Shown piece by piece: positions 2,496 through 38,224 of a stretch of 40,744 nt of DNA. The position numbers were made by a program, and so were the translations under genes. This DNA is from Thermoleophilia bacterium. Its GTDB lineage: Bacteria > Actinomycetota > Thermoleophilia > BMS3ABIN01. The notes under the pieces were generated by a model. That model did no database searches, was not told the DNA's origin, and worked only from the letters and a program-made list of their open reading frames with translations. Positions within the stretch are counted from its first letter, which is position 1, and every line of letters begins with the position of its first letter. The DNA is taken from positions 1 to 40,744 of the forward strand of contig JACUUL010000012.1 in NCBI GenBank assembly GCA_014859345.1. Reading direction: 5' to 3'.

Positions 2496-3074
2496 ATGAC
2501 CCGCAGCAAAAATCCCCGGATGGCAATGATCAGCGGCATGGTGAGAGATCTCACCGGCCCAGCCCATGACTGCGTTTTGATCAGGGCGGACCTTTGCGAC
2601 GGTTGCGGAGATTGCGTCACGGCCTGCGAAAGGGCGGTGGCCGGGAATGAAGGGGAACCGGATTCCGGCGGCGCCCGAATAAGGATCGTCAACAGGCAGG
2701 ATGCCTTCCTGCCCGTCCTCTGCCATAACTGTGAAGAAGCCCCCTGCGTCGCGGCCTGCATGACAGGGTGCCGCAGGAGAGGCTGCAGCGGATTCATCGA
2801 GACCGATTATGCCCGGTGCATGGGCTGCGGGATGTGCATCATGGTATGTCCTTTCGGCGCCATTGCTCCCGTGGGCGACGATCACAAAGCCCGCAAATGT
2901 GATGGCTGTACCGGGATGGATACTCCCGCCTGTGTCATTGCCTGCCGTCCGGGAGCCCTTGTCAAGGGACAGGTTCTCCTGTTCTCCGAGCATGTACGGC
3001 GGCGCTCAGCCGCCGGCATCGCCTCCGCCACCGGGGAGCCGGCCTCAGGCGCAAAAGGACGGGCAAGAGGATGA
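2496..3074 (+). CDS. Four-cluster ferredoxin, CooF/HycB type electron-transfer subunit
   Basis: A 192-aa soluble protein with sixteen cysteines in four sets that should bind four [4Fe-4S] clusters: C34/37/40/44, C76/79/84/88, C108/111/114/118 and C135/138/146/150. This spacing is the CooF/HycB/DmsB pattern, in which the protein wires a catalytic subunit to an electron acceptor. The C-terminal 35 residues are low-complexity. The stop overlaps the next start (ATGA), so the two are translationally coupled. CooF paired with an NAD(P)/FAD oxidoreductase is known from carbon monoxide dehydrogenase clusters and from some tungsten aldehyde oxidoreductase clusters. Neither catalytic gene is in this window, so the partner enzyme is unknown. 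Confidence 0.88.
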   Translation: MTRSKNPRMAMISGMVRDLTGPAHDCVLIRADLCDGCGDCVTACERAVAGNEGEPDSGGARIRIVNRQDAFLPVLCHNCEEAPCVAACMTGCRRRGCSGFIETDYARCMGCGMCIMVCPFGAIAPVGDDHKARKCDGCTGMDTPACVIACRPGALVKGQVLLFSEHVRRRSAAGIASATGEPASGAKGRARG

Positions 3075-4333
3075 GCGCCGGATGCGGCAACGGCGGCGGG
3101 AAAGCGTCCGGCCACGTCATTATCGGGAACTGCGCCGCCGGAATCGCCGCAGCTGAAGCTATCCGCGAAGCCGGCTGCCAGGAGCCGCTCAGCATCATCA
3201 CCGACGAGGAGCATCCCGCCTACGGCCGGCCCCTGACCTCATACGTCCTGGGAGGCAGGGTCAGCCGGGACCAGATCTGGCTCCGGCCGCCTGATTTTTA
3301 CGGCCGGCTCGCCATCGACATCCTCTTCGGGCAGCGGGCTGCCGCCGTCGATTCCAAGGAGAAGTCAGTCGTCATCGAGGGGGGAGGCAAGCTCCGGTAC
3401 GACAGGCTGCTGATCGCCAGTGGCGGCTCTCCCCGGAAACTGCCGGTGCCGGGCGCCGATCTCGCGGGCGTATTTTACCTGCGCACGGTCGCCGATTCCG
3501 ACGCCATCATCGGCCACCTGCCCCGCACGAGGCGGGTTGTGCTGTGCGGCGGCGGGCTGGTGACTGCCAAGGCGATGGACGCTCTACGGCACGTTGACAC
3601 CGTCGAGAGCATGAGCATGGTAGAGATAATGCCGGCGGTTCTTTCGCAGGTGCTCGATGGCGAACCGGCGGCGATCATGGAACAGCATTTCCGTGAAAAC
3701 GGAGTCGACGTGCGCACGGAGACCAGCATAGAGGAAGTCCTGGGCCGGGAAGGCCGGGTAGCAGGCGTGAGACTGAGCAGCGGAGAAGTGCTTGACTGCG
3801 AGATGGTGATCGTGGGGATGGGAGTGATTCCGAACACTGGTTTTCTGGCCGGCAGCGGCATAAAGACCGATTTCGGCATCCTGGTGGATTCATGCCAGCG
3901 GACCAGTGTCCAGGATGTCTTCAGCGCCGGCGACGTGGCCCAGGTGCCGGACTTCTTCGGTGACGGCAGCCGCGTCTGCGCCATCTGGCCCGCTGCCTGC
4001 CAGCAGGGACGGGTGGCCGGGCTCAACATGGCAGGCAGGGAAGCCGTCTACCGGGGCGGCGTCGGAATGAACTCGGCCGAGTTTTTCGGGCTGCCGGTGA
4101 TCGCCGCCGGCATGACGAAGCCAGGTGAAGGGAGGGAGGCGTTCGATTACCGCTCCGGGGAGAAGCAGTTCCGGCGGATCGTTCTGAAAGACGGGGTTGT
4201 CGTGGGATACGTCCTCTTGGGAGAGGTCTCCTGCACCGGGGTGCTGACGGCGATGATCTACAGCCGCCGCAAACTGAACGGGACGGTCCGCGACGTGCTT
4301 GCCGCAGACCTGAGCAATTTCATCCGCTCGTAA
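3071..4333 (+). CDS. NAD(P)/FAD-dependent oxidoreductase, CooF-associated (FNOR-like)
   Basis: This 420-aa flavoprotein belongs to the two-dinucleotide-fold family (NADH oxidase, rubredoxin and ferredoxin reductases). It has an FAD motif at residues 17-35 (IIGNCAAGIAAAEAIREAG, with Asn and Cys inside the usual Gly pattern), an NAD(P) motif near residue 155 (VVLCGGGLVTAKAMDAL), and the second FAD motif FSAGDVAQVPD. The likely job is to pass electrons between the upstream four-cluster ferredoxin and NAD(P)H. It overlaps that gene by 4 bp. The first ten residues are Gly-rich and precede the conserved fold. The gene ends 23 bp from the stop of a convergent operon, with no clear terminator between them. 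Confidence 0.87.
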   Translation: MSAGCGNGGGKASGHVIIGNCAAGIAAAEAIREAGCQEPLSIITDEEHPAYGRPLTSYVLGGRVSRDQIWLRPPDFYGRLAIDILFGQRAAAVDSKEKSVVIEGGGKLRYDRLLIASGGSPRKLPVPGADLAGVFYLRTVADSDAIIGHLPRTRRVVLCGGGLVTAKAMDALRHVDTVESMSMVEIMPAVLSQVLDGEPAAIMEQHFRENGVDVRTETSIEEVLGREGRVAGVRLSSGEVLDCEMVIVGMGVIPNTGFLAGSGIKTDFGILVDSCQRTSVQDVFSAGDVAQVPDFFGDGSRVCAIWPAACQQGRVAGLNMAGREAVYRGGVGMNSAEFFGLPVIAAGMTKPGEGREAFDYRSGEKQFRRIVLKDGVVVGYVLLGEVSCTGVLTAMIYSRRKLNGTVRDVLAADLSNFIRS

Positions 4334-4356: not shown

Positions 4357-4608
4357 CTAGTAATATGGTGCGGGCCTCCCCCAGGCGATGCCTGCGGCCT
4401 CGAGGGCGGAGATGGTTTTTTCTCCTGATTCGAGGCCGACATGTATCGTGGCGGTATAGGGCTCCACCGATGATACAGACTGGAACATGACTTCTATGCC
4501 CGCGTCTTCGAGGGCAATGCGCGCTCTTTCCCAGTCTCCGTTAAGAAAACCTACCCTGAGCGGCACCGAGCGGATCGTGCCCGCTGCCGCACCTGATGAT
4601 GTGTTCAC
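4357..4608 (-). CDS. Small ACT-like protein, third gene of the molybdoenzyme operon
   Basis: This 83-aa gene is absent from the ORF track as a separate entry. It is visible only as the tail of a spurious 234-aa frame. A GTG at 4608 is preceded by AAAGGAAG about 5 nt upstream and lies 25 bp after the stop of the Fe-S subunit. The product alternates likely strands and helices: LRVGFLNGD, WERARIALEDAGIEV, ATIHVGLESGEKTISALEAAGI. This beta-alpha-beta-beta-alpha order with repeated xALExAGI helix ends looks like a small ACT-type regulatory domain. A maturation or regulatory partner of the molybdoenzyme is possible. The family and function are inferred from shape only. Confidence 0.72.
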   Translation of the reverse strand: MNTSSGAAAGTIRSVPLRVGFLNGDWERARIALEDAGIEVMFQSVSSVEPYTATIHVGLESGEKTISALEAAGIAWGRPAPYY

Positions 4609-4633
4609 GGCGCTTCCTTTCCCTGATTTGATA

Positions 4634-5320
4634 TCACTGTCCGCGGCCCGCGCTGAGCTTTCCGGCGACCGGAACGAGGTGGCGGTGTTCCCGCGTGTCC
4701 CAACTTCCGCCGCCGCTCTCGGCGGCGGCCGCGATCCTGCGGGCTTCCCGCTGCCGGCGCATCGTGGACATGGCATTGATATTGCCGAAATGCAGAGCCT
4801 TGGTGGAGCAGGAAGTGGCGCAGGCCGGCCAAAACCCGGCGTCGACCCGGTCCATGCAGTAATCGCACTTGACGACTTTCTTCGTTTGCGGGTTGAACTG
4901 CGGCGCTCCGAAGGGGCACGCGTAAATGCAGCTCTTGCAGCCGATGCAGGCGGCCTCCTCGATAAAGACGATGCCGTCTTCGCGCTTCTGGCAGGCTCCC
5001 GTGGGGCAGGCCTGGGCGCATGGCGCCACGGGATCGCAGTGGTTGCACTGCATGGCCACAAAGGTTGTGCTGAGGCGGCCGCCGGTCAGCCGGGGCCCTA
5101 CCTGGATGATGCGGATCAGCCGGGGACCGACGGGCAGGCTCTTTTCCAGCTTGCAATGGACCTCGCAGCTGAAACAGTTGACACACCGGTCCTGGTCGTG
5201 CAGCATGGCCCAGCGGTTGCCGGCGCCCCGCAGGGTCACCCGTCCCTCGCGTCCTTCCCAGGGAAGCTTTCTGCCGGCGAATCCCTTTTGCTCTGTGTAT
5301 AGCGGGGTGGTGGCGCTCAT
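4634..5320 (-). CDS. Four-cluster Fe-S subunit of the molybdopterin oxidoreductase (DmsB/PhsB type)
   Basis: From the ATG at 5320 the product is 228 aa. AAGGAGG lies about 10 nt upstream, which favours this start over the track's 5347. Sixteen cysteines form four [4Fe-4S] sets: C46/49/52/56, C92/95/101/105, C125/128/131/135 and C152/155/167/171, including the hallmark CIGCKSCIYACPFGAP. This is the electron-transfer beta subunit paired with DMSO-reductase-family catalytic subunits. The gene begins 23 bp after the catalytic gene's stop. No Tat or Sec signal and no membrane segment is visible, so the complex should be cytoplasmic. The C-terminal 40 residues are less conserved and Arg/Gly/Ala-rich. 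Confidence 0.92.
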   Translation of the reverse strand: MSATTPLYTEQKGFAGRKLPWEGREGRVTLRGAGNRWAMLHDQDRCVNCFSCEVHCKLEKSLPVGPRLIRIIQVGPRLTGGRLSTTFVAMQCNHCDPVAPCAQACPTGACQKREDGIVFIEEAACIGCKSCIYACPFGAPQFNPQTKKVVKCDYCMDRVDAGFWPACATSCSTKALHFGNINAMSTMRRQREARRIAAAAESGGGSWDTREHRHLVPVAGKLSAGRGQ

Positions 5321-5343
5321 AAATCCAGCCTCCTTCTCATGCT

Positions 5344-7950
5344 TCACCGGCCCGCGCCCGGGCTTTCGCCCAGAGCGGGAGCGTTTTCATCTTCGGACGA
5401 TCTGCTCGGCGTGATTGGAGCCCGGTAATAGCCCGGCTCGTATTCCCGCCCCTCATGAATTATCTTCTCGCTTACGGGGTCCCATCGGGGAGCGTTCTCC
5501 TGCGCCACCCGGTTGGTGTAGTGGCCCAGTTCGCCGTCCATGGTCTGGCCTTCGTGGTAGAAGGACTCGGGGTTGACCTGGTAATCGGGGAAGGTGGCTA
5601 TATAATTCCGGGCCCGCTCCAGGGCCCAGCCTCGGTCGGAGCCCTTCTTGCGGATCATCACCAGCTGCGCCTTGAATTCAGCCTGGTTGTAAACCGGATC
5701 GTTGACCACGTCATCAATCAGGAACGAGACGTTGCGGTTGGTTGAGGGCGGCACGAACAACTGGTACTCGTCCGTGGAGCAGCAGATCCATATCTGCCGG
5801 GGATCGGTCTCCGCGGTCACCCAGGCAAAGCCCTCGATCTCCGCCTGCCGGCTGTCGACGATCACCAGGTCGCCATCGGCGATCTCCAGAACCGCCGCCG
5901 TGTCAGGATGGATCTGGATGAAGCGGTCAGGCTCCAGCTCGTCGGTCCAGGGCCACCAGTGGCCCATCTCGTGGAACGAGGAGACGATGCGGCCGGTGCA
6001 CAGGACAAAGGGATGCTCGCTGAACTCCTCGGTGGCCGACACCGGAGTGTGCCCGCCTTCCCGATGCTGCGGCAGGTAATCCCAGCCCAGGTCCCGGAGC
6101 GCATCCGAGGCGATCTCGATCTTACCCGAAGGCGTGGGAAAACGCTTGTCAGTCCCCGGATAGTTCTCTTCCTCGCGGTACATGATCCAGGTGCCGCGGA
6201 CGCTCGCCCCCGGTGTCTGGTAGCTCATGGCCTCCTCCTCGGTGCCCGCCGGCCACATGACGCCGCCCTTGGGCGTTGTCCGGGGATCGAGGGTCTCCTT
6301 GTAGCAGCCCGCGGTGAACTGGTCCTGCTGGTTGAAGAACTTCACCCAGGCGGCCTGGTCTCCCCGGGCCGGGTCCATCTCATCCCGGCATGGAAACCAG
6401 TCCCCCAGGCCCAGCCGGTCGGCTATGCCGATGACCACGTCGATGTCGTTGCGGCATTCCCAGTTCTCGTCGATACATTTGTTATACCATGACATCAACC
6501 GGTTGTTTCCGTGGTGCACCAGCCCCTCCCGCTCGAAAGCAGAGGTGATGGGGAAGGCGACGTGGGCGTGCTGGTAAGTGAAGTTGGGATGGAATGAATT
6601 ATGAATGGCGATATCGACGTTATGGCGGAAGGCCGATGAATACTTATGGGTATTGGGCATCTGGGCCAGCATGTTGCCGTTCCACCACACTCCCCTTACC
6701 GGATATGGCTTCTGGGTGAAGATGGCGTTGGCGAAATTGGCCGCGGAGATGTCCGCCCATGGCACCAGCTTGTTGCTGATGCAGGGCCGCTTCAGCCGGG
6801 GCAGTTCCTCGGTCAGGCGCTCGCCGGAAGGCCTTCCTCCGGCAGTGAAAGCCGTCTTTAGCGGCCGCCTGACCTCAGAAAGATCCCGGCCGGGATTGAG
6901 CGGCGGCCGGCAGTTGTGCAGCCAGTTCCACCCGCCGCCGGGGACGCCTATGCTGCCCGTCAGGGCCAGCAACGCGCCCCAGACGCGGTTGGTGTTGTTG
7001 GAATTGTAAGACTGGGCAGTCCCCAGGCAGCCGGTCATGCTGGCCGGGGTGTTGGTGGCGAAGGCGCGCGCCGCCTCCACGATGCGCTCCCGGGGTACCC
7101 AGGTGATCTTTTCCGCCCGCTCAGGGGGCATGTCGTCAATCAGCGGCCACCATTCGTCGAGGCCCTTGACCCACTTCTCGACGAATTCATGGTTATACAG
7201 GTCCTCCTTGAGGATGACGTTTATCATGGCCATTCCCAGCGCCGAATCGGTATTGGGCCTGAGTTGCAGGGCGATATCGGCCTTGGCCATCGAGGGGTGG
7301 AACCTGGGGTCGACCCAGATGATCTTGGCGCCGTTTTCCCTGGCGTCCAGGATCCAGTTCATGGTGGTGACCTCGGTGGCTCCCATGTGCGAGCCGGCGA
7401 CCAGGATGCATTTAGAGTTGATCCAGTCCTGGGAGGGATTCATCAGCCGTCCCAGTTCCCGGGCGCCGAAGAGGTAGTGCGCGGCCACTCCCGGCGATTC
7501 GCAGCAGATGGGACCCTGCCCGGCCACGTTCGGCGTGCCGAACAGCTTCCCGAAGCGGGCCGCCCCTTCCTTCCAGTTTAGATCCGAGCGGCCCGTCCTC
7601 TGGATGTAAAGGGCTTCCGGCCCGTACTCGTCCTTGAGCCGCTGCAGGCGCTCCGCAGCGAAGTCGAGCGCCGCTTCCCACGAGGCCCGCCGGAACTCCT
7701 GGTCGAGGCTCTCCCTGACCATGGGATATTTGACCCGGAGAGGGTTATAGATATGCTGCATCTGGCCTGAGCCCTTGCAGCACAGAGAGCCTCGACTGCC
7801 CGGATGCTCCGGATCCCCCTTGATGTCCACGATCTTGCCGTCCATGACGTAGACGAGCATTCCGCAGGCCGATTCGCACATGTTGTTGCAGGTGGTAGCG
7901 ACCACCTTGTCATACTTACGGAGGGACTGGCCAGAAGGTCTCAGAGTCAT
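5344..7950 (-). CDS. Molybdopterin oxidoreductase catalytic subunit (DMSO reductase superfamily)
   Basis: The catalytic subunit of a Mo- or W-bis-molybdopterin enzyme, 868 aa from the ATG at 7950, which has AAAGG about 8-9 nt upstream. The track's start at 8043 is a TTG without a ribosome site. The N-terminus holds a [4Fe-4S] motif (C21, C25, C29, then C57 or C58), and ICCESPG near residue 148 lies where the metal-ligand cysteine is expected. A molybdopterin dinucleotide binding domain closes the protein. The substrate cannot be read from the sequence; thiosulfate, polysulfide, arsenate, formate or acetylene-hydratase-like roles all remain possible. There is no Tat signal, no NrfD/DmsC anchor gene and no TorD chaperone gene beside it, which separates it from the usual respiratory operons. 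Confidence 0.92.
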   Translation of the reverse strand: MTLRPSGQSLRKYDKVVATTCNNMCESACGMLVYVMDGKIVDIKGDPEHPGSRGSLCCKGSGQMQHIYNPLRVKYPMVRESLDQEFRRASWEAALDFAAERLQRLKDEYGPEALYIQRTGRSDLNWKEGAARFGKLFGTPNVAGQGPICCESPGVAAHYLFGARELGRLMNPSQDWINSKCILVAGSHMGATEVTTMNWILDARENGAKIIWVDPRFHPSMAKADIALQLRPNTDSALGMAMINVILKEDLYNHEFVEKWVKGLDEWWPLIDDMPPERAEKITWVPRERIVEAARAFATNTPASMTGCLGTAQSYNSNNTNRVWGALLALTGSIGVPGGGWNWLHNCRPPLNPGRDLSEVRRPLKTAFTAGGRPSGERLTEELPRLKRPCISNKLVPWADISAANFANAIFTQKPYPVRGVWWNGNMLAQMPNTHKYSSAFRHNVDIAIHNSFHPNFTYQHAHVAFPITSAFEREGLVHHGNNRLMSWYNKCIDENWECRNDIDVVIGIADRLGLGDWFPCRDEMDPARGDQAAWVKFFNQQDQFTAGCYKETLDPRTTPKGGVMWPAGTEEEAMSYQTPGASVRGTWIMYREEENYPGTDKRFPTPSGKIEIASDALRDLGWDYLPQHREGGHTPVSATEEFSEHPFVLCTGRIVSSFHEMGHWWPWTDELEPDRFIQIHPDTAAVLEIADGDLVIVDSRQAEIEGFAWVTAETDPRQIWICCSTDEYQLFVPPSTNRNVSFLIDDVVNDPVYNQAEFKAQLVMIRKKGSDRGWALERARNYIATFPDYQVNPESFYHEGQTMDGELGHYTNRVAQENAPRWDPVSEKIIHEGREYEPGYYRAPITPSRSSEDENAPALGESPGAGR

Positions 7951-8316: not shown

Positions 8317-9198
8317 TTATCGCGGGCGGGAGAAATCGAGGTTGCCGGGGTAATTGTCGGAGATATGCGGATTCTGGCCGTAATGGTCAGCACCCGGCAA
8401 CGAAGCCAAAAAAGCTTCTTCCACCGACTTTCCCCTGGCGACGCCTTCGTCTATCACATAGTGCGTGAAAACCCCCCGGTTGACCTCGTGAAGCTCGCCG
8501 GAAAGCTGGTTTGCCTGACTGGAAAGCGTAAGCACCCGGTTGGGTCCGGAGATGCCGGGCCGGTCAAAACCGGCGCTGAAGCAACTGTCCACCGTGACCC
8601 ACATGCGCGCCGGGCTGATGCGGGACAGATGCTCTGCCAGGTACCAGTCAAAGAAAAGCCCGATGCCGTTCTTGTAATCGAAGCCCTGGAAATCGAAAGG
8701 GACCATGGCATAACCGTCTGGCAGGCCCGGCACCTTCAGTTCGCCCCTCTCGCCGTTGCGAAGTCCATGACCGCTGTAAAAGAACACTACGTCCGAACTG
8801 GCGTCGATTTCAGGATTTTCGGCCAGCCAGCTCAGGGCATTCCTGATGTTCTCATTGGTGGCCTGCTCGTTCTTGAGCAGGATCACGTTCTGGCGGGGAA
8901 AGCCCAGTTTCTTGGTGAGCAGATCGTACAGCGAGTCGGCGTCGCGGTCGGCGAATTTGATCCTGCCGAGCTCGTTGTTGTCGTAGACGATTCCTATGAT
9001 GACCGCGAACTTCTTGCCGGCGGGCGTATCGTCAACCGCCGCCTCCCGCACGGGCGTCGAGACGCCGCCCACCGCGGAAATCAAAACCGGGCCAAGGGGC
9101 TCGCCGGCCCCGGGGGGGCTGATGCCGGAAAGGCCCATGCTGAGCACCGAAACGGTCACGAAGATCAGGATTGCGGCATTTCGCGAGAAGGAGAGCAT
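8317..9198 (-). CDS. Exported caspase-like peptidase (C14 family)
   Basis: From the ATG at 9198 the product is 293 aa. It starts with a hydrophobic segment (residues 9-25) preceded by one Arg, which is a signal peptide or membrane anchor. A caspase-like domain follows from about residue 63. The catalytic His is in FFYSGHG (His144) and the Cys in VTVDSCFSAGF (Cys206), the dyad expected for bacterial metacaspase-like (orthocaspase) enzymes. Such enzymes cleave after basic or acidic residues, and the preference here is not readable. The track's 679-aa ORF is an artefact: its first 386 codons are antisense to tgt. The gene is divergent from tgt and has its own strong promoter, apparently leaderless. 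Confidence 0.88.
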   Translation of the reverse strand: MLSFSRNAAILIFVTVSVLSMGLSGISPPGAGEPLGPVLISAVGGVSTPVREAAVDDTPAGKKFAVIIGIVYDNNELGRIKFADRDADSLYDLLTKKLGFPRQNVILLKNEQATNENIRNALSWLAENPEIDASSDVVFFYSGHGLRNGERGELKVPGLPDGYAMVPFDFQGFDYKNGIGLFFDWYLAEHLSRISPARMWVTVDSCFSAGFDRPGISGPNRVLTLSSQANQLSGELHEVNRGVFTHYVIDEGVARGKSVEEAFLASLPGADHYGQNPHISDNYPGNLDFSRPR

Positions 9199-9205
9199 CT
9201 GGGCG

Positions 9206-9233
9206 ATTGTACCATGCCCGGAGAACGGTTCAA
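9206..9233 (-). promoter_or_regulatory. Leaderless-type promoter of the caspase-like gene
   Basis: On the minus strand TTGAAC (9233-9228) and TACAAT (9211-9206) are 16 bp apart. Only 7 nt separate the -10 from the ATG at 9198, so transcription should begin at or next to the start codon. The lack of a Shine-Dalgarno sequence agrees. Confidence 0.65.
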
Positions 9234-9248
9234 TACCTCCAACCCCGA

Positions 9249-10389
<1,141 letters not shown>

Positions 10390-34462: not shown

Positions 34463-34588
34463 CTCCGGAAAACATTCCTCTCCAAGCGGCAGCCATCAGG
34501 ATGAGGCCGTAAACTTCTCAAGGGTATGGAACCGGTGTTTGGGGGTAGAAGACCAGCAACAGGTAAATGGTCTTCTTGGGGAGGTTCG

Positions 34589-35695
34589 ATGGCTGGAAAG
34601 ATCACCATAAGCATTATCAAGGCGGATGTGGGCGGATTTGTCGGGCACGGCGATGTCCATCCCGCCTTGATCGAAACCGCCGAAGAGAGGCTGGCCGGGG
34701 CAAAAGCGGACGGGCTGCTGGTCGATTACCGGGTGGGCAAGGCCGGGGACGACACATCCCTGATCATGACCCACGACAAGGGTGTCGACGCGGAGCCGGT
34801 GCACAAGTTCGCCTGGGACACCTTTCTGGCCATGACCGAGGCGGCCAAAAAGTACAAGCAATACGGCGCCGGGCAGGACCTCCTCTCCGAAGCTTTTTCG
34901 GGCAACGTCAGGGGCATGGGTCCCGGGGTCGCCGAGATGGAGATAGAGGAGAGGCCCAGCGATCCCATCATCTGTTTCCTGGCCGACAAGACGGAGCCGG
35001 GCGCCTGGAACTATCCGCTCTTCAAGATCTTCGCCGATCCTTTTAACACCGCCGGACTTGTCATCGATCCCAAGATGACGGACGGGTTCTCATTCGAGGT
35101 CCAGGATCTGATCAAGAAGAGAACGGTTATGCTGTCCTGTCCTGCGGACTATTACGCGCTGCTCATGTTCATTGGCGCACCCAGCAGATTCGTGATCAAA
35201 CACGTTTTCCGCAACATCGATGATCTCATCTGCGCCGCCACATCGACGCAGCGCCTCAGCCTGCTGGCCGGGAGGTACGTGGGCAAAGACGACCCGGTGA
35301 TGATTGTAAGGGCCCAGAGCGGACTGCCCGCCGTCGGGGAAGTGCTGGAGCCGTTCGCCATGCCGTATCTGGTGTCCGGCTGGATGCGGGGATCTCATCA
35401 TGGACCCCTCATGCCCTGCTCGTTCAGGTATTCCCATCCGACCCGGTTTGACGGACCCCCCCGGGTCACGGCCTACGGCTTTCAGCTGGCGGACGGACAG
35501 CTGGTAGGGCCCAGGGACATGTTTGACGACCCTGCCTTCGACAGGGCCAGGGCGAAGTGCAATGAAGTCACCGATTACATCCGCCGGCACGGGCCATTCG
35601 AGCCTCACCGGCTCGGCCTCGATGAGATGGAATACACGACCATGCCCAAGTTGATGGAAAGACTCGAGGACCGCTTTTCTCCCACGGAGGAATGA
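34589..35695 (+). CDS. Archaeal-type fructose-1,6-bisphosphate aldolase/phosphatase (class V)
   Basis: This bifunctional enzyme condenses triose phosphates and then dephosphorylates the product, giving a one-way gluconeogenic step to fructose 6-phosphate. From ATG 34589 (GGGAGG about 4 nt upstream) the product is 368 aa, the family length. It opens with the family's KITISIIKADVGGFVGH and has the magnesium-site region GDDTSLIMTHDKG. The Schiff-base lysine and partner tyrosine occur as the YVGK motif in AGRYVGKDDPVMIVRAQSG. It is common in Archaea and in some deep-branching bacteria. The track's start at 34526 adds nothing conserved. Confidence 0.94.
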   Translation: MAGKITISIIKADVGGFVGHGDVHPALIETAEERLAGAKADGLLVDYRVGKAGDDTSLIMTHDKGVDAEPVHKFAWDTFLAMTEAAKKYKQYGAGQDLLSEAFSGNVRGMGPGVAEMEIEERPSDPIICFLADKTEPGAWNYPLFKIFADPFNTAGLVIDPKMTDGFSFEVQDLIKKRTVMLSCPADYYALLMFIGAPSRFVIKHVFRNIDDLICAATSTQRLSLLAGRYVGKDDPVMIVRAQSGLPAVGEVLEPFAMPYLVSGWMRGSHHGPLMPCSFRYSHPTRFDGPPRVTAYGFQLADGQLVGPRDMFDDPAFDRARAKCNEVTDYIRRHGPFEPHRLGLDEMEYTTMPKLMERLEDRFSPTEE

Positions 35696-36395: not shown

Positions 36396-36668
36396 CTAGC
36401 CGCCTGCCACCGCCGGCACGATGCTGATCTCGGAGCCGTCGGCGACACTGGTATCGAGCCCCTTGTCGAAACGGATGTCGTCTCCGTCGACGTAGATGTT
36501 GATGAAGCGGCGCACCTCGCCGCCGTCCAGCAGGCGCTCGGCGATGCCGGGGTGAAGGTTCTCCAGCTCCATGATGATCCTCCCCACGGTGCCGGCATCA
36601 GTCTCAACCATGCCCTCGCCGCCGGTGAGGTTTCTAAGCTGGGAAGGAATCCTTATCTTGACGCTCAA
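36396..36668 (-). CDS. MoaD/ThiS-family ubiquitin-like sulfur carrier
   Basis: A 90-aa beta-grasp protein ending in Ala-Gly-Gly. The free diglycine is the residue pair that is adenylated and thiocarboxylated in MoaD, ThiS and CysO. Typical blocks are KIRIPSQLRNLTGG near the start, FINIYVDGDDIRF in the middle and DGSEISIVPAVAGG at the end. The start is TTG at 36668 with AAAGGAG 7 nt upstream. It lies 67 bp downstream of the threonine-synthase-like gene on the same strand, and so under the same SAM riboswitch. No molybdopterin or thiamine synthesis genes are near, so a role as sulfur donor for the neighbouring PLP enzyme fits better than a cofactor role. Confidence 0.9.
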   Translation of the reverse strand: MSVKIRIPSQLRNLTGGEGMVETDAGTVGRIIMELENLHPGIAERLLDGGEVRRFINIYVDGDDIRFDKGLDTSVADGSEISIVPAVAGG

Positions 36669-36735: not shown

Positions 36736-37977
36736 TTAAGTAGACTTCACCACGTTCTCCAGCACTTCTTCCTCAAACTGGGAGAAATTCGGATCGATCT
36801 CGAAAGTTTCCAGGGTGCCGGCAACCGCGTCCAGGGTCTTGAGGCCGTCGCCGGTGATGAAAAGGACCACCTCCTCATCCCGATAGATCCTGCCCGCGGC
36901 GGCCAGTTTGGCCAGGACCGCCGTGGTGACGCCGCCGGCAGTCTCGGTGAAGATGCCGGTGGTCTCGGCCAGCAGCTTGATTCCGTCCACGATCTCCTGC
37001 TCGGTGACGCTCTCGATGACGCCCCCTGTGGCGCGGGCCACCTCCAGCGCGAAGACGCCGTCGGCGGGATTCCCGATGGCCAGGGACTTGGCGATGGTGT
37101 CGGGCTTGCAGGGCTTGACGTGCTCCAGCCCCTCCTTGAAGGCGGCGGCCACCGGGCCGCAGCCCTCGGCCTGGGCGCCATATACCACCGGCGCCTTGCG
37201 GCGGATGAGCCCCACCTCGCCCAGTTCCCAGAAACCCTTGTGGATCTTGGTCAGCAATGAGCCGGAGGCCACCGGCACCACCACCTTGTCAGGAGCCCGC
37301 CAGCCAAGCTGCTCGGCGGTCTCGTAGGCCAGCGTCTTGGAGCCCTCGGCGTAGTAAGGGCGCACGTTGACGTTGACGAAAGCCCATTTCTTCTCTGAGG
37401 CGATCTCGGTGCAGAGACGGTTGACATCATCGTAGTTGCCTCGCACCTTGACCACATTGACGCCGTAGACGGCGGTGGCGATGATCTTCTGAATCTCCAG
37501 GTTGGCCGGCACGAACACGAAAGCCTCGGTGCCGGAGGCAGCCGCGTGGGCGGCGACGCTGTTGGCCAGGTTGCCCGTGGAGGCGCAGGCCACCACCTCA
37601 AAACCCAGTTCCAGGGCCCGCTGCAGCGCCACGGACACCACCCGGTCCTTGAAGGAATGTGTGGGATTGGCTGTGTCGTTCTTGACCCAGACCTTCTTCA
37701 AGCCCAACTTCGCCGCCAGCCGGTCGGCCTTGATCAACGGCGTGAAACCGGCCTGCAGGTCAACGGAGGGTTTGTTCTCCACGGGCAGGAAATCGGCGTA
37801 TCGCCAGAGCGAGGGCGGCCCCAGGGCGATGCGATCCTTGGTGGCCCGGCGGCGGATCTTCCCGTAATCGTATGCGACCTCCAGGGGGCCGAAGCAGAAA
37901 TCGCAGACAAACAGAGCCGCCAGCGGGTAGGAACGCCCGCACTCCTTGCATTTCAGTTGTTCGGCCGTAGTTGCCAC
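36736..37977 (-). CDS. Threonine synthase-like PLP enzyme under SAM control
   Basis: A 413-aa PLP enzyme of the threonine synthase family, which normally turns O-phosphohomoserine into threonine. The N-terminus is a zinc ribbon (CKECG ... CDFC). The PLP lysine is in NPTHSFKDRVVSVAL, followed by CASTGNLANSVAAHAA and the C-terminal FTETAGGVTTAVLAKL. The start is GTG at 37977 with AAGGAG 5 nt upstream. The ATG just before it is out of frame and the track's 38160 start runs into the riboswitch. Control by a SAM riboswitch and the MoaD-like partner raise the possibility that it makes homocysteine or another sulfur amino acid instead of, or as well as, threonine. The sequence alone cannot decide. 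Confidence 0.93.
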   Translation of the reverse strand: MATTAEQLKCKECGRSYPLAALFVCDFCFGPLEVAYDYGKIRRRATKDRIALGPPSLWRYADFLPVENKPSVDLQAGFTPLIKADRLAAKLGLKKVWVKNDTANPTHSFKDRVVSVALQRALELGFEVVACASTGNLANSVAAHAAASGTEAFVFVPANLEIQKIIATAVYGVNVVKVRGNYDDVNRLCTEIASEKKWAFVNVNVRPYYAEGSKTLAYETAEQLGWRAPDKVVVPVASGSLLTKIHKGFWELGEVGLIRRKAPVVYGAQAEGCGPVAAAFKEGLEHVKPCKPDTIAKSLAIGNPADGVFALEVARATGGVIESVTEQEIVDGIKLLAETTGIFTETAGGVTTAVLAKLAAAGRIYRDEEVVLFITGDGLKTLDAVAGTLETFEIDPNFSQFEEEVLENVVKST

Positions 37978-38012
37978 ATGGACTCCTTGTCGTTCCGTGG
38001 CGCCGGTCGCAT

Positions 38013-38042
38013 GAAAAAGACCTCTGCATGATGTGGCAGAGG
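38013..38042 (-). terminator. Riboswitch-controlled intrinsic terminator
   Basis: CCTCTGC and GCAGAGG form a perfect 7-bp stem around an 8-nt loop, followed by TCTTTTTC. The left arm and loop contain CCACATC, which is exactly complementary to GATGTGG, the 3' strand of riboswitch helix P1. The alternative pairing would break the terminator when SAM is absent. Confidence 0.85.
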
Positions 38043-38062
38043 CCAGACAGGTCCATCCTATC

Positions 38063-38190
38063 ACCACATCTTCCAGACCGTACCGCGGTCTGCAGGATTT
38101 GGCACCTTGCGGATTATGTTGGCGGCCGGGCCGCCATGCCGCAGGTTGCCGAGGCTTCACAGGGCCAGTCCCTCTGCCTCTCTGGATGCG
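38063..38190 (-). promoter_or_regulatory. SAM-I (S-box) riboswitch aptamer
   Basis: Read on the minus strand, the region has nearly the full S-box consensus: ATCCAGAGAGGC, AGAGGGACTGGCCC, GAAGCCTCGGCAACC, then GGTGCCAAATCCTGCAG, and AAGATG at the end. P1 is formed by TCGCATC and GATGTGG. P3 has an inner GGCGG/CCGCC hairpin, and P4 is CAGACCG/CGGTCTG. The kink-turn and SAM-pocket bases are present. It should turn the operon off when SAM is high through the terminator downstream. This class normally controls methionine and cysteine metabolism. Confidence 0.95.
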
Positions 38191-38224
38191 AACAACGCGT
38201 TTGTTACCTGGTTGTAGCGATATG

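What the first reader, a model, noticed from the sequence alone, without database searches (positions are those of the whole stretch)
4357..7950. Cytoplasmic molybdoenzyme operon without anchor or chaperone but with an ACT-like protein
The catalytic and four-cluster subunits are typical of the DMSO reductase superfamily, but there is no Tat signal, no NrfD/DmsC subunit and no TorD-like chaperone. The third gene is a short ACT-like protein instead. The ICCESPG stretch at the likely metal-ligand position does not match a motif I can assign to a known substrate class. A new subfamily is possible.
Basis: partly seen in the sequence, partly recalled or inferred. Interest (0 to 1): 0.65.

Follow-up and report, generated by a model that had tools for sequence, protein, structure and literature searches.

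The report
Unnamed molybdoenzyme clade, sulfur-linked neighbourhood
A bacterium from a sulfur-metabolising lineage carries a soluble molybdenum or tungsten enzyme from a clade that fits none of the characterised families tested, and its gene neighbours in relatives suggest that it handles an inorganic sulfur compound such as sulfite and exchanges electrons with NAD(P).

Summary
The three-gene operon is real: catalytic subunit 7950-5344, four-cluster Fe-S subunit 5320-4634, 83-aa protein 4608-4357, all minus strand, with no Tat motif and no NrfD. The catalytic subunit belongs to a monophyletic clade (100/100) outside every characterised clade I could put in the tree, and passes no NCBIfam cut-off. 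It occurs in Actinomycetota, Nitrospirota, Chloroflexota, alphaproteobacterial MAGs and Hydrothermarchaeota. 'ICCESPG' is resolved: Cys149 is invariant and aligns with the Sec/Cys metal ligand of FDH, NapA, Psr and acetylene hydratase; the FDH His and Arg are replaced. The small gene is conserved beside it in every bacterial-branch locus long enough to show it. Two corrections: relatives do have a TorD-like chaperone gene in the operon (this genome seems to have lost it), and the convergent genes 2496-4333 (second four-cluster protein, FAD/NAD(P)H oxidoreductase) belong to the system. Neighbours in several lineages (Qmo/Hdr, DsrE2, TauE, lipoate-assembly genes) point to sulfur. Best guess: a soluble NAD(P)-linked oxidoreductase of sulfite or another sulfur compound. 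The substrate is inferred, not shown. SoeA/SreA, TtrA and ArrA could not be placed in the tree.

The parts
5344..7950 (-). catalytic Mo/W-bisPGD subunit, 868 aa, no signal peptide
   Evidence: Pfam PF04879/PF00384/PF01568; tree; relatives
7780..7890 (-). N-terminal [4Fe-4S] (FS0) binding stretch, C21-x3-C25-x3-C29 ... C57-x-K59
   Evidence: sequence; C25, C29, C57, K59 nearly invariant in 29 sequences
7504..7506 (-). codon of Cys149, predicted Mo/W ligand (ICCESPG); Cys150 next to it is Cys or Thr in relatives
   Evidence: invariant in the 29-sequence alignment; aligns with FdhF Sec140, NapA Cys, PsrA Cys, acetylene hydratase Cys
6916..6918 (-). codon of His345 in the invariant NWLHNCRP motif, at the position of FDH Arg333
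5947..5976 (-). family motif FHEMGHWWPW
   Evidence: ten consecutive invariant residues, absent from all references
4634..5320 (-). four-[4Fe-4S] electron-transfer subunit
   Evidence: Fer4_11; DmsB/TtrB-like but below all cut-offs; 16 Cys in four motifs
4357..4608 (-). small conserved protein, beta-alpha-beta-beta-alpha fold, ACT-like
   Evidence: present in every bacterial-branch locus long enough; alignment A1; AF2 pLDDT 85, best fold matches aspartokinase ACT domains, weak
2496..3074 (+). second four-cluster Fe-S protein (FeS2), PadI-like, part of the same system
   Evidence: 47% identical to the operon member in L054; same kind of partner in L021, L023, L033
3071..4333 (+). FAD/NAD(P)H oxidoreductase, PadH/NirB-N-like, predicted NAD(P) end of the electron chain
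   Evidence: PF07992; PadH 272 bits, below its 475 cut-off; 38% identical to the operon member in L054; convergent copy also at the contig end in G001

Best explanation
The locus encodes a soluble, cytoplasmic oxidoreductase from an unnamed Cys-ligated clade of the DMSO reductase (MopB) superfamily. Parts shown: catalytic subunit with one N-terminal [4Fe-4S] site and a bis-PGD fold, a four-cluster Fe-S subunit, a small ACT-like protein, and a convergent FeS2 plus FAD/NAD(P)H module. Inferred electron path: Mo/W centre (Cys149) - FS0 - four clusters - four clusters of FeS2 - FAD - NAD(P). Inferred substrate: an inorganic sulfur compound, most likely sulfite (sulfite + H2O to sulfate + 2 e-; from general knowledge the sulfate/sulfite couple is low enough to reduce NAD+), with sulfur or polysulfide reduction by NAD(P)H second. 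The small protein is most likely a structural or regulatory subunit of the bacterial form. The chaperone of the clade is a TorD-like protein whose gene this genome has probably lost; the paralogue on contig C51 may stand in.
For: Discrete clade: tree 100/100 in two builds; next homologues in 99 related genomes only 30-35% identical. Soluble: no RR, no hydrophobic helix, no NrfD. Cys ligand. NAD(P) module: FAD protein of PadH kinship plus FeS2, in one operon with the catalytic gene in L054 and beside it in L021, L023, L033. Sulfur context: QmoC over its cut-off upstream of the catalytic gene in L020; HdrA-like, HdrC-like and HdrB-like genes (read here as a Qmo/Hdr block) divergent from it in L018, L019, L022; HdrB and DsrE2-like upstream and TauE/SafE downstream in L054; TauE in archaeal L036; radical SAM and lipoate ligase genes directly upstream in L030; TusA, DsrE2, lipoate-assembly and GcvH genes on the same contig in G001. 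The window genome has AprA and two DsrA-family genes over cut-off. Literature: sHdr/LbpA makes sulfite in the cytoplasm and TauE exports it (PMC12423496); L020 is MAG nzgw271, described as a sulfur oxidiser (PMC11033732); Hydrothermarchaeota and Actinomycetota include Dsr-pathway carriers (PMC10591310).
Against: aprA is in 15 and dsrA in 18 of the 19 family genomes searched, but the catalytic subunit in only 2, so it is not part of core sulfate metabolism and the genome-level link is confounded. G103 has the cluster but no AprA or DsrA. Nothing in this 40-kb window is a recognised sulfur gene. Alphaproteobacterial and most archaeal loci show mainly Mo-cofactor genes as neighbours. The archaeal branch lacks the FAD protein nearby. 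ArsR- and Acr3-like genes lie near the DsrE2/lipoate cluster in G001, so an arsenic substrate is not excluded. No formal chance estimate for the neighbourhood was made.
Confidence: 0.4

Rival explanations
1. It reduces polysulfide, elemental sulfur, thiosulfate or tetrathionate with electrons from NAD(P)H, as a soluble Psr-like enzyme.
For: Best PDB sequence match is Thermus polysulfide reductase (186 bits) with a near-gapless alignment at the Cys ligand; sulfur context as above; sulfur reduction by NADH is thermodynamically feasible (general knowledge).
Against: Outside the PsrA branch in both trees; no Tat, no NrfD; PhsA cut-off not met (201 of 694).
Confidence: 0.2
2. It is a branch of the cytoplasmic SoeA/bacterial SreA lineage that has swapped its membrane anchor for an NAD(P) module.
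For: Same location, Cys ligand and four-cluster subunit as described for SoeA (PMC10100899 Table 1; PMC6620896); sulfur context.
Confidence: 0.2
3. It acts on arsenite, thioarsenate or selenium oxyanions, for detoxification or energy.
For: The nearest sampled outgroup (Streptomyces plasmid, L060) sits in an arsenic-resistance cluster; ArsR- and Acr3-like genes near the DsrE2 cluster in G001; a Soe-like enzyme was proposed for arsenite in Thioalkalivibrio (PMC6620896).
Against: The outgroup is distant and a single-gene enzyme; no ars genes were noticed next to the catalytic gene itself; ArsR-type regulators also control sulfur oxidation (PMC12423496, abstract).
Confidence: 0.12
4. It is a divergent soluble formate dehydrogenase or CO2 reductase linked to NAD(P).
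For: Best NCBIfam score is Fdh-alpha (266 bits); the top structural neighbour is FdhF; soluble with an NAD(P) partner, as in many FDHs.
Against: Far below the 666-bit cut-off; the catalytic His after the Sec/Cys and Arg333 are not conserved (Cys/Thr and His); RGQNNVQG motif absent; outside the FDH clade in both trees. The genome has a separate FDH-like gene with an in-frame TGA on C28.
Confidence: 0.08

Closest known systems
SoeABC sulfite dehydrogenase / bacterial SreABC sulfur reductase
   Same: cytoplasmic catalytic subunit without Tat signal, Cys ligand, four-cluster Fe-S subunit, sulfur setting (from PMC10100899 and PMC6620896)
   Different: no SoeC membrane anchor; FeS2 plus FAD/NAD(P)H module and small ACT-like protein instead; phylogenetic relation not tested
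Polysulfide/thiosulfate reductase PsrA/PhsA (2vpw)
   Same: best PDB sequence match; Cys ligand aligned
   Different: no Tat, no NrfD anchor, separate branch, equivalog cut-off not met
NAD-linked and other cytoplasmic formate dehydrogenases
   Same: soluble, Sec/Cys ligand position, C-x-K-G at FS0, NAD(P) partner
   Different: FDH His and Arg catalytic pair not present, FDH equivalog cut-off not met, separate clade
Acetylene hydratase
   Same: Cys ligand, soluble, 159-bit PDB match
   Different: works without redox partners; separate branch
Phenylglyoxylate dehydrogenase PadHI (electron-transfer module)
   Same: FAD/NAD protein and FeS2 are PadH- and PadI-like
   Different: below PadH/PadI cut-offs; associated with a molybdoenzyme, not with a 2-oxoacid oxidoreductase
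Unnamed Cys-ligated MAG lineages in Wells et al. 2023 (PMC10100899, Fig. 3)
   Same: described there as novel families with PsrA/AH/DmsA-like best hits and a Cys ligand
   Different: no gene content or function given; whether this clade is one of them was not tested

Membership tests
DMSO reductase (MopB) superfamily | Fe4S4, molybdopterin and dinucleotide-binding domains | tested here: met
   PF04879, PF00384, PF01568 all over cut-off; fold search E down to 5.5e-44
Formate dehydrogenase | Sec/Cys ligand followed by His | tested here: not met
   Cys149 present, next residue Cys or Thr
Formate dehydrogenase | catalytic Arg333 in RGQNNVQG | tested here: not met
   invariant His345 in NWLHNCRP
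Formate dehydrogenase | TIGR01591 equivalog cut-off 666 bits | tested here: not met
   266.6 bits
PsrA/PhsA/SrrA | clade membership and equivalog cut-off | tested here: not met
   201 of 694 bits; separate in trees
PsrA/PhsA/SrrA | Tat export and NrfD-type anchor | tested here: not met
   no RR motif; no NrfD in the window operon or noticed in relatives' loci
SoeA / bacterial SreA | cytoplasmic Cys-ligated catalytic subunit with four-cluster subunit | tested here: met
SoeA / bacterial SreA | membrane anchor subunit SoeC/SreC | tested here: not met
   no anchor gene in the window operon or noticed among neighbours of relatives
SoeA / bacterial SreA | phylogenetic placement | not tested
   no SoeA/SreA reference sequence could be obtained
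ArrA/ArxA, TtrA/SrdA, NasC, AioA | clade membership | tested here: inconclusive
   NCBIfam ArrA, NasC and arsenite oxidase models far below cut-off; not in the tree
ACT domain (small protein) | Pfam ACT match | tested here: not met
   no family
ACT domain (small protein) | beta-alpha-beta-beta-alpha-beta fold | tested here: inconclusive
   AF2 pLDDT 85; aspartokinase ACT domains best but E about 1e-3, TM 0.5-0.6
TorD-like chaperone in the clade's operon | PF02613 gene next to catalytic genes | tested here: met
   met in relatives L032, L021, L037, L054; not met in the window genome

The most novel reading that the evidence does not exclude
A soluble, anchor-free, NAD(P)-linked molybdenum or tungsten sulfite dehydrogenase (or reversible sulfur-compound oxidoreductase) coupled to the sHdr/DsrE2/LbpA or Qmo sulfur route, shared by bacteria and Hydrothermarchaeota, with a dedicated ACT-like subunit in bacteria. 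It would give sulfite electrons a direct NAD(P) exit, which to my knowledge no described sulfur pathway has.
Probability: 0.25. Interest if true: 0.8.

Novelty: new variant of a known kind. Interest (0 to 1): 0.55.

Why it matters
The clade spans two domains and several subsurface sulfur-cycling lineages, has its own active-site motifs and its own small subunit, and no assigned function. If it oxidises sulfite with NAD(P), it would be a soluble alternative to SoeABC and to the Apr/Sat route and would change energy budgets inferred for groundwater Nitrospirota, Actinomycetota and Hydrothermarchaeota. If the substrate is different, it is still an uncharacterised MopB clade with testable predictions.

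Tried and rejected
Closer characterised relatives: none among NCBIfam equivalogs, PDB or plasmids (best about 28% identity). PhsA and ArrA labelled reference genes were sought in the phylum to enrich the tree; none was found (the controls did not ring, so this says nothing about absence). SoeA/SreA references could not be obtained with these tools. No regulatory RNA upstream of the operon (no Moco riboswitch). The AF2 model of the catalytic subunit is mediocre (pLDDT 70, under 50 around the metal site), so the ligand was assigned by alignment, not from the model. The family TorD was looked for elsewhere in the genome: only the C51 paralogue. Paper searches gave no description of this gene cluster.
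Full report
OBSERVATION. The minus strand of 4357-7950 encodes three genes in one operon: an 868-aa catalytic subunit (7950-5344), a 228-aa Fe-S subunit (5320-4634, preceded by AGAAGGAGG) and an 83-aa protein (4608-4357, GTG start). Pfam gives the three MopB domains for the first, Fer4_11 for the second and nothing for the third. None has a twin-arginine motif in its first 45 residues or a membrane-helix-like stretch. The Fe-S subunit has four cluster motifs.

WHAT THE CATALYTIC SUBUNIT IS. It reaches no NCBIfam cut-off: Fdh-alpha 266 of 666 bits, PhsA 201 of 694, NasC 181 of 1100, DmsA 161 of 778. The best PDB match is Thermus polysulfide reductase, 186 bits. A scan of one genome per species found relatives with 43-85% identity: a Gaiellales MAG (85%), Nitrospirota (about 65-70%), alphaproteobacterial MAGs (64-65%), an Anaerolineales MAG (61%), contigs from an Altiarchaeales single-cell assembly (56-64%; possibly mis-sorted), and Hydrothermarchaeota/Pyrohabitans (43-47%). 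In this organism's own family 1 of 18 other genomes has it; in a 397-genome sample of the phylum one further genome, G103, has it at 68%. Maximum-likelihood trees with E. coli FdhF, FdnG, NapA, NarG, DmsA, TorA, YdeP, Thermus PsrA, HDCR FdhF, acetylene hydratase, two paralogues from the same genome and distant relatives place the 13 sampled members as one clade (100/100) with a long stem, outside every reference clade. The nearest sampled neighbours are uncharacterised enzymes from Nostoc, Streptomyces and Pseudohalocynthiibacter plasmids. SoeA, SreA, TtrA, ArrA, NasC and AioA are not in the tree, which is the main gap.

THE METAL SITE. In the 29-sequence alignment Cys149 is invariant, Cys150 is Cys or Thr, and ESPG follows invariantly. 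Cys149 aligns with Sec140 of FdhF and with the Cys ligands of NapA, PsrA and acetylene hydratase. The enzyme is thus predicted to be Cys-ligated. The FDH catalytic pair is not there: the His after the ligand is Cys/Thr, and Arg333 is an invariant His345 in NWLHNCRP. A private motif, FHEMGHWWPW, is fully conserved. The AF2 model supports the overall MopB fold but is too weak at the site to add to this.

THE SMALL PROTEIN. It is encoded after the Fe-S gene in every bacterial-branch locus whose contig reaches that far (L005/L032, L018, L019, L021-L029, L031, L033, L054 and the window); L020, L030 and L046 end before it. Invariant residues are G10, P16, R18, N23, D25, V45, E49, P50, T54. The predicted fold is beta-alpha-beta-beta-alpha with pLDDT 85, and the closest solved folds are aspartokinase ACT domains, at E about 1e-3. 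'ACT-like' is thus reasonable but not proven. In the archaeal branch an unrelated small gene (77-108 aa; no Pfam match in the one member scanned) takes the same place.

THE SYSTEM IS LARGER THAN THREE GENES. In G103 (L054) one strand carries catalytic, Fe-S, small, FeS2, FAD oxidoreductase, TorD-like and TauE/SafE genes in order. Nitrospirota loci L021 and L023 add a VWA-domain protein and carry TorD, FeS2 and FAD genes. In the window, FeS2 (2496-3074) and the FAD protein (3071-4333) lie convergently just past the small gene; they are 47% and 38% identical to the L054 proteins. In G001 (85% identical) the order is catalytic, Fe-S, small, TorD, then the end of a convergent FAD gene. The window genome therefore appears to have lost the TorD gene that lay between the small gene and the FAD gene. 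Its only PF02613 gene is on C51 beside a Tat/NrfD operon. The FAD protein is PadH/NirB-like, so the electron exit or entry is most likely NAD(P) (inference).

SULFUR CONTEXT. Immediate neighbours in other lineages are: QmoC over its cut-off in L020; HdrA-like genes plus HdrC- and HdrB-like genes (read here as a Qmo/Hdr block) divergent from the catalytic gene in L018, L019, L022; HdrB and a DsrE2-like gene upstream in L054 (the DsrE2 gene is split in the draft); TauE/SafE in L054 and in archaeal L036; radical SAM, lipoate ligase and a MOT1-like transporter gene (by clustering with a PF16983 protein) upstream in L030. In G001, TusA, DsrE2, lipoate-assembly and GcvH-like genes lie on the same contig, roughly 10-20 kb away. 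The window genome has AprA over cut-off, two DsrA-family genes over cut-off, and what read as sat, aprB, aprA, qmoA, qmoB, qmoC in a row (names other than AprA read from sequence). Published work describes sHdr/LbpA producing sulfite and TauE exporting it (PMC12423496), nzgw271 (L020) as a sulfur oxidiser (PMC11033732), RBG-16-64-22 Nitrospirota with oxidative-type dsrA (PMC10203281), and Dsr pathways in Hydrothermarchaeota and Actinomycetota (PMC10591310). Against this, aprA is in 15 and dsrA in 18 of the 19 family genomes while the catalytic gene is in 2, so it is an accessory and the link at genome level is confounded; several loci show only cofactor genes; ars-like genes occur near the G001 cluster. 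No formal chance estimate for the neighbourhood was made.

MECHANISM. Most likely: substrate at a Cys149-ligated Mo/W-bisPGD, electrons through FS0, the four-cluster subunit, FeS2 and FAD to or from NAD(P). The parts are shown; the path, the metal, the direction and the substrate are inferred. Sulfite oxidation is the preferred substrate reading (about 0.3), sulfur or polysulfide reduction next (0.2), arsenic or selenium compounds about 0.1, formate under 0.1.

VERDICT. A real, conserved and apparently unnamed clade of a known superfamily, with its own accessory-gene set and a plausible sulfur role. Novelty: new variant of a known kind. Wells et al. 2023 already noted unnamed Cys-ligated MAG lineages, of which this may be one.

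Noticed in passing
window 38063-38192 (-): SAM riboswitch (87.8 bits) just upstream of a gene that looks like threonine synthase (36736-38160), itself followed by a MoaD/ThiS-like small protein (36396-36668).
   Followed up: no
window 8317-9280 (-): The C-terminal half of the 679-aa ORF looks like a secreted caspase-like peptidase divergent from tgt (9286-10389); the N-terminal half is antisense to tgt and probably not coding.
   Followed up: no
window 34526-35695 (+): Looks like an archaeal-type fructose-1,6-bisphosphate aldolase/phosphatase, which would suit an autotroph.
   Followed up: no
L086 (G000:C9): A row that reads as sat-aprB-aprA-qmoA-qmoB-qmoC in this genome, plus two DsrA-family genes on C86 and C14: a dissimilatory sulfur metaboliser in the window's phylum.
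   Followed up: partly
L085 and L087 (G000:C9, G001:C29): TusA, DsrE2, radical SAM proteins, lipoate ligase with DUF116, FAD protein and (G001) GcvH-like protein resemble the sHdr-associated lipoate-assembly set; in G001 ArsR- and Acr3-like genes sit beside it.
   Followed up: partly
L034-L047, gene after the first Fe-S gene: Archaeal members have a different conserved small protein (77-108 aa) where bacteria have the ACT-like one, and a second four-cluster protein of the same family.
   Followed up: partly
L021, L023, L028, L029: Nitrospirota loci carry a 750-800 aa VWA-domain protein (CbbO/NorD-like by eye) next to the operon genes, perhaps a metal-centre activation factor.
   Followed up: no
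L060 4806-7331: A single-gene molybdopterin oxidoreductase, among the nearest sampled outgroups of this clade, lies inside a Streptomyces plasmid arsenic-resistance cluster.
   Followed up: no
L031, L033: Altiarchaeales single-cell contigs carry bacterial-branch members with NuoEF-HdrA-like neighbours (L031); possible mis-sorting or transfer.
   Followed up: no
L056 (G000:C51): A separate Tat-bearing Psr-like molybdoenzyme operon with NrfD-like, Fe-S, TorD and multihaem cytochrome genes; its residue at the metal-ligand column is not Cys in the alignment.
   Followed up: no
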